Assembly (NCBI GenBank): GCA_016471375.1
Contig: WGLZ01000090.1
Span: 1-64,000 of the forward strand
Reading direction: 5' to 3'
DNA from: Cyanobacteria bacterium RI_101
GTDB lineage: Bacteria > Cyanobacteriota > Cyanobacteriia > Cyanobacteriales > Microcystaceae
Length of the DNA stretch: 64,000 nucleotides
Both the position numbers and the translations under genes were made by a program. Below the pieces are notes generated by a model. That model ran no database searches. It was not told the DNA's origin and saw nothing but the letters and a program-made list of their open reading frames with translations. Shown here piece after piece: positions 3,791 to 24,084 of the stretch (position 1 is its first letter; each line of letters begins with the position of its first letter).

Positions 3791-5176
3791 GATCAATTAA
3801 TGCTTCTAGTGAGTAGAAACCTTTGTCAAAATAGTCACCAAAAGAAGTAAAAGTGTTTTGTTTTTAGTCAATTAGCGCCTCTAGCGAGTAGAGACGATGG
3901 ATGTATGGCTTTTCAGAGACACACTAGAGGGGATTGGTTTCCAATCAATTAGCGCCTCTAGCGAGTAGAGACTAACCGTTATCCGTCGGGCTTTACAGTT
4001 ATGGTCGAACCGTTTCCAATCAATTAGCGCCTCTAGCGAGTAGAGACCCGACTAACATCTGGTTTAACGCTGGCAAGGGTGACTCCTTGTTTCCAATCAA
4101 TTAGCGCCTCTAGCGAGTAGAGACAAGCGGTGGAGAAAGCAAGGCGGTCTGGAGAATACAAGTTTCCAATCAATTAGCGCCTCTAGCGAGTAGAGACAAA
4201 CTCCAACAACATTCTCGCGTCATGGAACTCGGTTAGTTTCCAATCAATTAGCGCCTCTAGCGAGTAGAGACTATGATGCACTCAAGACTGATTACAGCCT
4301 ATCCGAAGTTTCCAATCAATTAGCGCTTCTAGCGAGTAGAGACCTTGGCAATCAATGAGTTAATTGACGATCAAAAAACCTTAGAGTTTCCAATCAATTA
4401 GCGCCTCTAGCGAGTAGAGACCGGGACGAACGAGATAAGGGCGATGTTATTTCCCGCCTTTCGTTTCCAATCAATTAGCGCCTCTAGCGAGTAGAGACCA
4501 TTGAAGCGGTGGAGTGGGATGACAAGGCAGGGTACTTGTTTCCAATCAATTAGCGCCTCTAGCGAGTAGAGACGACTCACTTCTACAGCGTTGTGGTAAT
4601 GCGCGCCCAGCTGTTTCCAATCAATTAGCGCCTCTAGCGAGTAGAGACATGTACTTTGACCGTTTTGATATCTGCGAGGCGTGGTTTGTTTCCAATCAAT
4701 TAGCGCCTCTAGCGAGTAGAGACTGTAGCCAGCAACCCGAACAGCCTTGTCGTTAAAGTCTGCGCGTTTCCAATCAATTAGCGCCTCTAGCGAGTAGAGA
4801 CAATCCTTGAGTATGCTATCGAGCATAATTATGAAGTCCCGTTTCCAATCAATTAGCGCCTCTAGCGAGTAGAGACGCCTTGGGCTTCGGCGCCCTGATG
4901 AACTCCGGGATCATCGTTTCCAATCAATTAGCGCCTCTAGCGAGTAGAGACCAAGTCCGTCAAAAATGCCCCGCTAGCCTACGGCAGTTTCCAATCAATT
5001 AGCGCCTCTAGCGAGTAGAGACTGACAAGGGCCAATACGCCGCTCTGGTCGTCAGGATCGAGGTTTCCAATCAATTAGCGCCTCTAGCGAGTAGAGACCC
5101 AACCCCAGCCGTGTTGAGCGGCCCGAACAAATTGGCTACCGTTTCCAATCAATTAGCGCCTCTAGCGAGTAGAGAC
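3785..5176 (-). CRISPR. CRISPR array, 19 repeats of 36 bp, 18 spacers
   Basis: The 36-bp repeat reads GTTTCCAATCAATTAGCGCC+TCTAGCGAGTAGAGAC on the plus strand. Spacers are 35-42 nt. The repeat at 3785-3820 is heavily degenerate, the one at 3860-3895 is altered in its first bases, and the one at 4308-4343 has one change; the rest look identical. On the minus strand the repeat ends in ATTGGAAAC, the usual crRNA handle form, and has a CTCTA/TAGAG stem. With decay at the 3785 end this puts the leader right of 5176 and makes the array minus-strand. No cas1, cas2 or cas6 is in the window. Confidence 0.97.
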
Positions 5177-5320
5177 AGCCCCATTTTAAACCCTTGCCCC
5201 ATAAGGAGTCCAGCGCCGGTTTGCGAGGGCTGTTAAAATCGACCCCACCCACGACCGCCAACGCCCCAATAAAAACGCTGAAACCCTTACCCCGTAAGGG
5301 TGCGAGGGCTGTAACGAGAG
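5177..5320 (-). promoter_or_regulatory. Probable CRISPR leader with duplicated motif
   Basis: This non-coding stretch abuts the last intact repeat. It contains two copies of a motif of the form AAACCCTTnCCCCnTAAGG...TGCGAGGGCTGTWA (5188-5238 and 5281-5315, plus-strand reading); the first copy carries about 14 extra bases. A duplicated motif beside the youngest repeat fits a leader and integration signal. The rest of the gap to 5698 holds a short CCCTTCGACAAAGCTCAGGG-type repeat near 5424 and the promoter and ribosome site (GAGGG) of ppsA. No gene is seen there. Confidence 0.5.
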
Positions 5321-20447: not shown

Positions 20448-21983
20448 TTAACGAATCAAATCGTAGGAAATATCCGTTTTCGACGGAATATTACTGTTGC
20501 GATCCAACTCGTCCAGAATCGTGTTGACAATCCAGTTCAAGAGGTTAATCGTCCCTTGATAGCCATAGGTGGCGTAGCGATGGAGGTGATGGCGGTCAAA
20601 GATAGGATAACCAATGCGGACAAAGGGCACTTTCGTATCCCGCCAGAGATATTTCCCGTAGGAATTGCCAATCAACAAATCCACCGGCTCGGTGAAGAGC
20701 AAAGAACGCAGATGCCAGAGGTCTTTGCCGCCCCAAATAGTGGCGTTAGCGCCGAAGGGACTGCTATCCAGTAGCGCGCGCAGTTCGGTTTCAAAAGCGG
20801 GGTTGCTGTTAGAAACTAAAATGTGAATAGGTTCGGCGCCGACTTCGAGGAGGAATTGGGTCAAACCAATCACCAAGTCGGGATCTCCGTAGAGGGCGAT
20901 CCGTTTGCCGTGGAGCCAAGCCTGGGAATCCGTTAAGGCGTCCACCGCCCGGCCCCGCTCGTCTTCCAATTCCTGGGGAATAGGTTGCCCCGTCAGCGCC
21001 GATAATTTAATCAAAAACTCATCGGTGCCGCGAATGCCGACGGGACGACAAACTGCGGTCGGTTGTTTCCAGTCTTTTTCGATATACTCCCGCGTTTTAA
21101 CGGTGGAATAGGCTTGGAAGGCGATGGTGGCTTCGGCGTTGACGGAATCCGCCGCCACTTCTAAGGGCGTGCCGCCGGGATACATCGTGTAGGTGCCATT
21201 GTTGGGAGAATCCAGATAATCGGAGTTATCCGCTAAAAGGGTGTAATTCACCCCCATGACCTCCGCTAGGCGCTTGACTTCCCGTAGGTTGCCAATATAG
21301 GTTTCAAAACCGGGAATAAAGTTAATTTTCCCGTTTTTAGTTTCCGTTTTTTTGCCTTCTGTTAGGTTGGTCAAAATCCCCTTGAGCATATTGTCATAAC
21401 CCGTAATATGGGAGCCAATAAAACTGGGCGTATGGGCAAAAGGCAGGGGAAAATCTTCGGGGACAGAGCCTTTTTCCTTGGCGGTTTTTGTGAAAGCTTG
21501 CAGGTCGTCGCCAATGACTTCCGCCATGCAGGTGGTGCAGACCGCAATCATTTTGGGATTGTACAAATTATAGGAGGTGGCTAAGCCCTCTACCATATTG
21601 TTCAAGCCGCCAAAGACCGCCGCGTCTTCCGTCATCGAGGAAGAAACCGCCGAGAACGGTTCTTTGAAATGGCGAGTGAAATGACTGCGGAAATAGGCGA
21701 CGCAACCTTGGGAACCGTGGACAAAGGGGAGGGTTTTCTCAAAACCCACCGCGGCTAAAATAGCGCCGAGGGGTTGACAGGCTTTGGCGGGATTAATGGT
21801 CAGCGCCTCCCGAGCGAAGTTTTTCTCCCGGTATTCCCAGGTTTTCGTCCATTCTCCGGTCTCGGCGACAAGAGTTTCGGGATGGCAACCTTCAAATTCT
21901 TTTTTGTTGGCAAAGAGTTCCTGATATTCGGGATCATGGAAAAGTTGCCCGTGGTCTTTGATAGCGTGTATATCTTGCGGCAT
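20448..21983 (-). CDS. nifK: Nitrogenase molybdenum-iron protein beta chain
   Basis: A 511-residue beta subunit of the MoFe protein, which with NifD holds the P-cluster. P-cluster Cys ligands are visible in [30 protein letters not shown] and [29 protein letters not shown] follows. Length is normal and no residue is missing. Unusually, it is separated from nifD by 622 bp containing an opposite-strand four-helix-bundle gene and purine-rich tracts. Transcription from nifH must therefore cross that insertion, or nifK needs its own promoter. Confidence 0.98.
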
Positions 21984-22009
21984 GATTCAAACTCCGGTTT
22001 GTTGGTAAG

Positions 22010-22076
22010 GGTGGGTGTGGGAAGAAGGGGAGGAAAGGGAGGAGGGGGAGGAAATGGGGGAAGATGGAGGGGATGA
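22010..22076. repeat. Purine-rich GGGAGGA tract, left flank of insertion
   Basis: The plus strand is almost purely G and A (GTGGGAAGAAGGGGAGGAAA...), and a similar tract (GTGGGAAGAGGGGGAGGAG...) reappears at 22493-22530 on the other side of the four-helix-bundle gene. The two flank the gene as degenerate direct repeats. Confidence 0.7.
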
Positions 22077-22095
22077 GTTTTTAGGGGTTGGGGTA

Positions 22096-22488
22096 ATGAC
22101 GGACGAGATGAACCGGTCTTTGAAAACCCATGAGGATTTGGCGGTTTATCAGTTGGCTTTCGCCAGCGCCATGAACATCTTTGAGTGTTCTAAAAAGTTT
22201 CCTATCGAGGAAAGATACTCATTGACTGACCAAATCCGGCGCTCTTCTCGGTCGGTTTGCGCTAATTTTGCCGAGGCTTGGAGAAAACGGCGCTATCGGG
22301 CGGCTTTTATCGCCAAGTTAAGCGATTGCGAAGCGGAAGCGGCGGAGACCCAAGTTTGGCTTAAATTCGCAGTTAAGTGTCAATACCTTAGTCCTGAAGA
22401 AGGGAGAGAACTTTACCAAACCTACAATCAAATTTTGAGCGGTTTAGTGAAGATGATTCATTCGCCTGAGAAGTGGGTGATTTCTTAG
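22096..22488 (+). CDS. Four-helix-bundle protein, 23S rRNA-intervening-sequence (IVP) family
   Basis: The 130-residue product begins NRSLKTHEDLAVYQLAFASA and continues with YSLTDQIRRSSRSVCANFAEAW, KLSDCEAEAAETQVWLKFA and YNQILSGLVKMI. This is the TIGR02436/IVP four-helix bundle, first found in sequences inserted in 23S rRNA genes and related to Avd accessory proteins of retroelements. Its function is unknown. I use ATG 22096 because the upstream part of the track ORF is only a Glu/Gly-rich reading of the purine tract. The gene lies on the strand opposite to nifD and nifK, wedged between them and flanked by purine tracts, which suggests a mobile cassette. Confidence 0.85.
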   Translation: MTDEMNRSLKTHEDLAVYQLAFASAMNIFECSKKFPIEERYSLTDQIRRSSRSVCANFAEAWRKRRYRAAFIAKLSDCEAEAAETQVWLKFAVKCQYLSPEEGRELYQTYNQILSGLVKMIHSPEKWVIS

Positions 22489-22605
22489 GAGAGTGGGAAG
22501 AGGGGGAGGAGTGGGAAGAGTGGGAGGAGGTAAAAGTACTATCCTCCATGTCTCCCCTTTCTTCCCTTTCCCCCATGTCCTCCCTTTCCTCCAGATCCCT
22601 CATCT
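22489..22605. repeat. Purine tract followed by inverted pyrimidine tract
   Basis: GAGTGGGAAGAGGGGGAGGA (from 22490) is followed by TCTCCCCTTTCTTCCCTTTC and TCCTCCCTTTCCTCCAG (to about 22595), so the block can fold on itself. The same pyrimidine-rich type recurs before hesB at 36473-36556. Confidence 0.65.
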
Positions 22606-24084
22606 CTACTTCCAGGGAGCGCCGATTAAGGCCCAAGTCGGACTGTTTAGCGCCAAGTCCATGTCCCGAGCGAAGATAGCGAAACCGTCATAGCCGTGGT
22701 AGGGGCCGGAATAGTCCCAAGAGTGCATTTGGCGGAAGGGCAGGGCCATTTTTTGGAAGACGTATTTTTCCTTAATGCCCGAAGCGATCAGATCCGGTTT
22801 CAAAGCTTTGACAAACTCCTCAAATTCGTAGGCGGAAACGTCGTCGTAAATGAGGGTGCCGTCTTCGACGTAATTGGTCGTCCGTTTGTAGTCGTCGTTG
22901 TGACCAAACTCATAGCCGGTGCCGACCAGTTTCATGCCTAGATCGTAGAAGGCGGGGACAACGTGGCGGGGACGGAGACCGCCCACCATTAGAGCGACGG
23001 TTTTCCCTTCCAAACGGGGACGGAATTTATCAATCACCGCTTGACATTGGGCTTCGTATTTGGCGATGACCGCTTCGGCGTTGGCTTGAATCGTTTCGTC
23101 AAATTTAGCGGCGATGGCCCGCAGAGATTCGGCGATTTTGGTGGGGCCAAAGAAGTTATATTCCAGCCAAGGAATGCCGTAGGTTTCTTCCATGTGGCGG
23201 GTAATATAGTTCATGGAGCGGTAGCAGTGAACCAAATTTAACTTGACGCCGGTGGTGAGCATCATTTCGTTAAAGGTGCCGTCTCCCGACCATTGGGCTA
23301 CCACTCGCAGGCCGATTTCTTCCAGTAAAATCCGACTCGACCAAGCGTCGCCGCCAATGTTGTAATCCCCGATAATGGCGACGTCGTAGGGCGTGGTTTC
23401 CACTCCTAAACCGCCCTCTTTTTTGGCTTTATCAGCTCGGGGGAAGACCCAATCCCGAATGGCGTCGTTGGCGATGTGGTGTCCAAGGGATTGAGAAACG
23501 CCCCGGAACCCTTCGCAACGAACGGGAATCACCGGTTTGCCGATTTCTTTACTGGCTTTTTTGGAAACCGCTTCGATGTCGTCCCCAATTAAGCCAATGG
23601 GACACTCTGACTGCACCGAAACGCCCTGATTGAGCGGAAAGAGGACTTCAATTTCTTCGATCAGTTTGGCGAGTTTTTTATCTCCGCCAAAGACAATGTC
23701 CCGTTCCTGAAAGTCCGAGGTAAATTGCATCGTGCCGAAGCTATCAACCCCGGTGGTGCCAATGTAATAATTTCGACGCCCAGACCAAGAGTAGTAGCCG
23801 CAACCCACAGGGCCATGACTGATGTGCACCATGTCTTTAATCGGCCCCCAGACCACGCCCTTCGAGCCAGCGTAGGCGCAACCCCGGGTGGTCATGGAAC
23901 CGGGCACGGATTTGATATTGGATTTGACGCCGCAGTCGGATTTCCCTTCTTCATAGACGTTGAGATGTTTGGCCCGTTTCTTCTGCGCTTTTTCAGGATA
24001 AGCTTCCAGAACCTCTTGAATCAGAGCCTTTTTCTCTTCGTTCGTCTCAACGGTGGGGGGATTGGGTAAGGTGGCAGTAGTCAT
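22606..24084 (-). CDS. nifD: Nitrogenase molybdenum-iron protein alpha chain
   Basis: A 492-residue catalytic alpha subunit. P-cluster Cys ligands are in [12 protein letters not shown] (about residue 69), [13 protein letters not shown] (about 95) and [13 protein letters not shown]. The FeMo-cofactor ligands are Cys in [10 protein letters not shown] and His in [16 protein letters not shown]. All are present and the gene is intact, with no nifD excision element of the heterocyst type. It follows nifH by 91 bp containing a strong hairpin. The downstream neighbour on the same strand, nifK, is displaced by the insertion at 22.0-22.6 kb. Confidence 0.98.

What the first reader, a model, noticed from the sequence alone, without database searches (positions are those of the whole stretch)
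21984..22605. Opposite-strand four-helix-bundle gene wedged between nifD and nifK
nifD and nifK encode a 1:1 complex and are normally adjacent. Here an intact IVP-family gene on the other strand, bordered by purine-rich direct repeats and an inverted pyrimidine tract, separates them by 622 bp. It looks like a cassette insertion tolerated in the structural operon, and it may change the NifD:NifK ratio.
Basis: partly seen in the sequence, partly recalled or inferred. Interest (0 to 1): 0.7.

Follow-up and report, generated by a model that had tools for sequence, protein, structure and literature searches.

The report
Mobile hairpin gene splitting nitrogenase genes
A small gene for a four-helix-bundle protein sits, on the opposite strand and between purine- and pyrimidine-rich repeats, between the two genes that make nitrogenase; it belongs to a large family of cyanobacterial hairpin-enclosed genes that turn up in different places in related genomes, so it is most likely an old, tolerated, mobile-element-like insertion and not a nitrogen-fixation gene.

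Summary
Confirmed: a PF05635 (23S rRNA-intervening-sequence protein, IVP) gene lies on the + strand at 22096-22488, between nifD and nifK, which are both on the - strand. It lies in a 622-bp spacer; in 23 relatives the spacer is 91-297 bp with no such gene. Only one other nif cluster (a Prochloron-like MAG, nifD about 90% identical) has it. Synonymous divergence of IVP and nifD between the two is equal (about 2.3-2.4, saturated), so the insert is old. dN/dS of related IVP pairs is mostly 0.04-0.22.

The flanks matter most. Across about 88 related cyanobacterial IVP genes the upstream side is purine-rich and the downstream side pyrimidine-rich, usually as locus-specific inverted repeats. IVP genes 92-98% identical sit in unrelated places in different Nostoc species, sharing only 430-525 bp. 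Empty and filled sites were found, one with an 8-bp duplication; one insert has flipped. The window gene is best read as one of a class of small hairpin-borne IVP elements, analogous to 23S rRNA intervening sequences but outside rRNA. What moves it is unknown, and any effect on NifD:NifK is untested. A second IVP in this genome lies inside a DUF1156 coding sequence whose frame stays open.

The parts
22096..22488 (+). IVP (PF05635 / TIGR02436) four-helix-bundle gene, 130 aa; alternative start ATG at 22108
22005..22077 (+). upstream purine-rich short-repeat arm (GGGAGGAAAGGGAGGAGGGGGAGGAA...), also supplies a GGAG-rich leader
22489..22531 (+). downstream direct copy of the purine-rich tract (36-bp best match to the upstream arm)
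22540..22605 (+). pyrimidine-rich tract, inverted relative to the upstream arm; reaches the nifD stop codon
20448..21983 (-). nifK; its GGAG ribosome-binding sequence and start lie outside the purine/pyrimidine tracts
22606..24084 (-). nifD

Best explanation
The 622-bp spacer holds an IVP hairpin element: a gene for an S23/IVP four-helix-bundle protein lying between complementary repeat arms that are built from the genome's own dispersed G-rich short tandem units. SHOWN: such elements are widespread in cyanobacteria; near-identical copies occupy unrelated sites in different species; sites are empty in close relatives; orientation at a site can differ; the protein is under purifying selection; at nifDK the element is a derived, old insertion shared by two related nif clusters. 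INFERRED: (1) the element entered the nifD-nifK spacer in an ancestor of these two clusters, either as a unit mobilised by an unidentified enzyme (the 8-bp duplication at one Nostoc site) or by exchange of the loop between dispersed hairpins with similar arms; (2) it was tolerated because it lies between two genes, outside the nifK ribosome-binding site; (3) in the nif transcript the arms fold into a long stem with the antisense IVP sequence in the loop, which RNase III could cut as it cuts 23S rRNA intervening sequences, leaving separate but functional nifD and nifK mRNAs; (4) the IVP protein acts for the element itself, plausibly by binding hairpin nucleic acid as its relative Avd acts in retrohoming, and not for nitrogenase.
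For: Derived state: IVP between nifD and nifK only in G000 and G056; 23 other junctions 91-297 bp without it, including G050 (nifD about 89%). Age: dS 2.27 for IVP vs 2.44 for nifD between G000 and G056. Selection: dN/dS 0.04-0.22 in 9 of 10 ortholog or near-ortholog pairs; the tenth is too similar to score. Arms: purine fraction 0.65 upstream and 0.37 downstream vs 0.52 and 0.51 for 240 neighbouring ORFs (p 5e-30, 2e-25); own upstream and downstream arms complementary (median score 50 vs 22 between loci vs 17 direct); IVP enclosed by inverted repeats in 51 of 86 loci vs 8 other such pairs in the same ~600 kb. Other cyanobacterial IVP subfamilies have arms of other units (43.5 vs 18). Mobility: Nostoc pairs 92-98% identical over 430-525 bp with no other match in 4 kb on either side; empty/filled site with 97% flanks and ATCGCAAC on both sides of the insert; one site that is empty, IVP-A, a different IVP (76%), or an IVP-less repeat hairpin in different Nostoc genomes; rpsF-rlmN site empty in one Crocosphaera and filled in opposite orientations in two others. 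The predicted junction RNA pairs the outer arms across the IVP.
Against: No enzyme of movement is identified; IVP is no known recombinase. An automated scan found no general target-site duplication. Genomes such as G042, G016 and G025 have many purine tracts and no IVP, so the repeats do not need it. At nifDK the architecture is R-IVP-R-Y, not a clean hairpin, and its own arm match is modest. The junction z-score of -6.2 rests on 20 shuffles that do not keep the tracts clustered, and the local hairpin alone is no better than shuffles (z -0.7). RNase III cutting, IVP translation and nucleic-acid binding were not tested.
Confidence: 0.72

Rival explanations
1. Passive cargo of recombination: dispersed purine/pyrimidine hairpins are unstable sites, and IVP genes are swapped into their loops by homologous exchange between arms made of the same tandem unit; there is no IVP-specific mobility.
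For: At the L155 and L148 sites relatives carry a repeat hairpin with a different loop (tandem repeats) instead of IVP; purine tracts abound in genomes without IVP; arm lengths and units vary freely around a conserved ORF.
Against: L122 went into a site with no hairpin in G080, with an 8-bp duplication; the DUF1156 site has no hairpin in relatives; inverted repeats at this spacing surround IVP far more often than other genes.
Confidence: 0.4
2. A nif-related accessory or regulatory gene recruited to the operon, acting on nitrogenase assembly or on the NifD:NifK ratio.
For: Retained in two nif clusters under constraint; location inside the structural operon.
Against: On the opposite strand; absent from 23 relatives' junctions; none of the other fetched relatives lies beside nifHDKEN genes; close relatives sit beside unrelated genes in many genomes.
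Confidence: 0.07
3. The element is selected here as an RNA processing or expression-tuning spacer: the arm hairpin, or antisense transcription from the IVP strand, alters nifK expression relative to nifD.
For: About half of the relatives' nifD-nifK spacers have a purine-rich first half and a pyrimidine-rich second half even without IVP; the predicted fold closes the outer arms.
Against: In the relatives the two halves are not matched inverted repeats (own 13 vs cross 13); no expression data.
Confidence: 0.12
4. Assembly artefact at a repeat.
For: Purine/pyrimidine arrays break assemblies (the G056 contigs end there).
Against: Independent MAG with the same gene next to nifD and the same protein subfamily (80% identical); intact, constrained ORF.
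Confidence: 0.02

Closest known systems
23S rRNA intervening sequences with an S23/IVP ORF (Leptospira, Coxiella; PMC4990558)
   Same: IVP-family ORF in the loop of terminal inverted repeats that fold into a stem; purine-rich leader; size about 430-600 bp
   Different: Here in protein-coding operons, intergenic spacers and even coding sequences, not in rRNA; arms are short tandem G-rich units that differ between genomes; ORF antisense to the nif transcript and strongly constrained, whereas Coxiella S23p is decaying
Avd of diversity-generating retroelements (4dwl)
   Same: Same four-helix-bundle fold (target TM-score 0.87)
   Different: Scores 27 bits against a cut-off of 80 for the Avd family; no retroelement parts were recognised at the locus
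G/C-rich intrastrand triplex motifs of cyanobacteria (PMC4666352)
   Same: Abundant dispersed purine/pyrimidine tracts linked to genome instability
   Different: No carried gene between the tracts is described in the passages read
MITE / REP-REPIN type miniature mobile DNA (REPIN: PMC3116915)
   Same: Short, dispersed, inverted-repeat bounded, no transposase of their own
   Different: Carries a conserved, selected gene; arms are tandem arrays; mobilising enzyme unknown

Membership tests
PF05635 / TIGR02436 IVP four-helix-bundle protein | Profile score above curated cut-off | tested here: met
   102 vs 33.8 bits; 95.4 vs 24 bits
PF05635 / TIGR02436 IVP four-helix-bundle protein | Four-helix bundle like Xcc0516 (2gsc) / BT_0352 (2rld) | tested here: met
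   AlphaFold2 pLDDT 91.6; target TM-score 0.93 and 0.89
PF05635 / TIGR02436 IVP four-helix-bundle protein | Homopentameric ring | not testable with these tools
   described for Xcc0516 (2gsc) in PMC4990558; multimers were not modelled
23S rRNA intervening sequence (IVS) | Inserted in a 23S rRNA helix | tested here: not met
   lies between nifD and nifK; no Rfam family at the locus
23S rRNA intervening sequence (IVS) | Terminal complementary arms around an IVP ORF | tested here: met
   family-wide strong; modest at this locus
23S rRNA intervening sequence (IVS) | RNase III excision of the transcript | not testable with these tools
   needs RNA
DGR Avd | Score above Avd family cut-off | tested here: not met
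   27.2 vs 80 bits
DGR Avd | Neighbouring reverse transcriptase and template/variable repeats | not tested
   only nif genes identified beside it; window not scanned for a reverse transcriptase
MITE-type element | Terminal inverted repeats and target-site duplication | tested here: inconclusive
   arms in most loci; 8-bp duplication with an empty site at L122 and an apparent one at L115, no general enrichment
REP/RAYT | Y1 transposase of the RAYT family as partner | not tested
   IVP is not such a protein; genome not scanned for RAYT

The most novel reading that the evidence does not exclude
Cyanobacterial IVP genes define a minimal class of mobile element (about 430-620 bp) whose single protein recognises and helps spread the hairpin that encloses it, outside rRNA, in intergenic spacers and even inside coding sequences where the host reading frame is kept open through the IVP gene.
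Probability: 0.25. Interest if true: 0.85.

Novelty: new variant of a known kind. Interest (0 to 1): 0.66.

Why it matters
IVP/S23 proteins have long been known from split 23S rRNAs, with no known role. Showing that in cyanobacteria they are carried by hairpin-bounded segments that occupy different sites in related species gives a concrete, testable role (element maintenance or movement) and a source of empty/filled sites for experiments. The nifDK case shows that even a 1:1 structural operon tolerates such an element for a long time, and bears on how cyanobacterial genomes acquire their purine/pyrimidine repeat hairpins.

Tried and rejected
Ancestral nif gene: rejected. Hairpin already present at nifDK before IVP: suggested by the purine-then-pyrimidine spacers of relatives, but their halves are not complementary, so not claimed. 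General target-site duplication: not found by automated scan. IVP as the cause of the repeats: correlation across 58 genomes (Spearman 0.41) driven by the own family (0.57), none across the other families (0.12), with clear exceptions. Within-genome paralogs as sign of recent copying: they are 72-80% identical, so spread looks mainly between species. Rfam: no match. Local downstream hairpin as an unusual RNA: z -0.7. Promoter and terminator scans: nothing above chance. Literature searches found no report of IVP genes in repeat hairpins of cyanobacteria, within an open-access library only.

Full report
Observation. The window holds nifB-nifS-nifU-nifH-nifD-nifK on the - strand (gene identities other than nifD and nifK from the sequence and gene order) and nifE/nifN on the + strand. 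Between nifD (22606-24084) and nifK (20448-21983) lie 622 bp with an intact + strand ORF at 22096-22488. The ORF belongs to PF05635, the 23S rRNA-intervening-sequence protein family (102 bits, cut-off 33.8). Its predicted structure is a confident four-helix bundle closest to 2gsc, 2rld and, more distantly, phage Avd 4dwl. The flanking repeats are as described: purine tract, IVP, purine tract, pyrimidine tract, read on the IVP strand.

Is it an insertion? Of the relatives that carry a comparable nifDK, 23 have 91-297 bp between the genes and no IVP. One other genome, G056, has an IVP of the same subfamily directly behind nifD. It is the Prochloron sp. SulCav MAG, whose nifD is 89-91% identical by two searches. 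Its nifK contig ends in a pyrimidine array and its IVP-nifD contig begins in a complementary purine array, so the order there is most likely also nifD-IVP-nifK. dS between G000 and G056 is 2.27 for IVP and 2.44 for nifD, both saturated. The insert is thus derived, but as old as the split of these two clusters as far as can be measured. Pairs of related IVP genes elsewhere have dN/dS of 0.04-0.22, so the protein is maintained.

What it belongs to. A profile from nine close relatives found at least 341 relatives, nearly all in cyanobacteria among the 80 loci fetched. The genes were chosen by protein, not by flank. Purine fraction in the 150 bp upstream is 0.65 (median) against 0.52 for 240 neighbouring ORFs, and downstream 0.37 against 0.51. 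Within a locus the two flanks are complementary beyond composition: median local score 50 against 22 for flanks of different loci and 17 for direct orientation; 35 of 77 loci rank in the top 5% where 3.9 are expected. Inverted repeats with a 250-1500 bp spacer enclose the IVP in 51 of 86 loci, and only eight other such pairs occur in the same 606 kb. The repeat units differ between genomes (GGGGAGGCA, GGGGGGTGT, GGGGACAA, GGGAGACT and others), while both arms of one locus share a unit. IVP genes of other subfamilies have arms of yet other units. These loci are related by descent, so the p-values overstate independence.

Mobility. Nostoc IVP genes that are 92-98% identical share only 430-525 bp and nothing else in 4 kb on each side; the shared part ends in the arms. 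At the L122 site a genome with 97% identical flanks is empty, and the filled site has ATCGCAAC on both sides of the insert against a single ATAGCAAC in the empty one. At the L148 site different Nostoc genomes have nothing, an IVP, another IVP only 76% identical, or a repeat hairpin without IVP; the L155 site is similar. Between rpsF and rlmN the space is 52 bp in one Crocosphaera and filled by arms plus IVP in two others, in opposite orientations. An automated search for target duplications over 75 loci found no excess, so a single transposition mechanism is not shown. Arm-mediated exchange remains open.

How it most likely works. Shown: an IVP gene within repeat arms, found at varying sites, with a protein under constraint. 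Inferred: the segment is a small element that moves or is exchanged between hairpins; in RNA its arms pair (predicted for the nif strand, with a control that does not preserve tract clustering) and may be cut by RNase III as in 23S intervening sequences (PMC4990558); the protein serves the element, possibly by binding its hairpin as Avd-like proteins act on retroelement nucleic acid. At nifDK the element is tolerated because it lies between genes and leaves the nifK ribosome-binding region (CCGGAGTTTGAATC-ATG) outside the repeat tracts. Nothing here tests whether it changes NifD:NifK.

Genome context. The own genome has 709 overlapping purine-40-mer hits against 5-34 in its four congeners, and three IVP genes against none. 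Across 58 genomes tract density and IVP number correlate moderately (0.41), with exceptions, so the tracts are not simply made by IVP. The other two IVP genes of the genome are telling: one lies between cas6 and cas4-cas1; the other lies inside a DUF1156 coding sequence.

Nested IVP. In the DUF1156 gene the host frame stays open through IVP and arms: the whole frame is 1203 codons, against 988 and 1037 in relatives that lack the insert. A second case, at a different site, lies in a DUF1156-type gene of Crocosphaera G027. Among 110 IVP ORFs these are the only two with any alternative frame open, both in frame +2, where the median number of stops is 13. For the first, resampling codons with usage from window genes gives an open +2 frame in 1.1% of trials. 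This points to selection for reading through, and deserves its own study.

Limits. Genomes are one per species, so strain-level polymorphism was not seen. The literature library holds open-access papers only.

Noticed in passing
L012 (G000:C72:17500-21000, - strand): A second IVP gene with its repeat arms lies inside a DUF1156 coding sequence; the host frame remains open through the insert (1203 codons vs 988 and 1037 in relatives), and two further in-frame repeat palindromes lie in the same gene.
   Followed up: partly
L051 / L197 (G027:C96): A DUF1156-type gene of Crocosphaera carries another IVP insert at a different site, again with the host frame open in the same relative frame (+2); only these two of 110 IVP ORFs have an open alternative frame.
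   Followed up: partly
L013 (G000:C17:22300-25600), IVP at 1440-1814: Third IVP of the genome, of another subfamily, between cas6 and cas4-cas1, in inverted CAGATATCAGATGACAG-type repeats.
   Followed up: partly
L160, L161/L093, L163 (Crocosphaera rpsF-rlmN spacer): Spacer empty (52 bp) or filled by arms plus IVP in either orientation, the arms abutting both stop codons.
   Followed up: yes
L092 vs L109 (orthologous Nostocaceae loci): Both arms appear to have changed their repeat unit together (GACAAGG to GAGAGTGGG); own-arm scores 94 and 96 against 60 and 59 when swapped. Most other orthologous pairs do not show this.
   Followed up: partly
L015 (G000:C16:10000-12200), about 1019-1161: Purine-pyrimidine hairpin without IVP after a coding sequence in the same genome.
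   Followed up: no
L127 (Calothrix sp. PCC 7716), 2035-2514 and 4592-5272: Cysteine-desulfurase-like matches on both sides of an IVP gene; could be one interrupted gene or two separate ones.
   Followed up: no
L159 (Anaerolineae MAG Bin_81R): A cyanobacterial-type IVP on a contig assigned to Chloroflexota; transfer or mis-binning.
   Followed up: no
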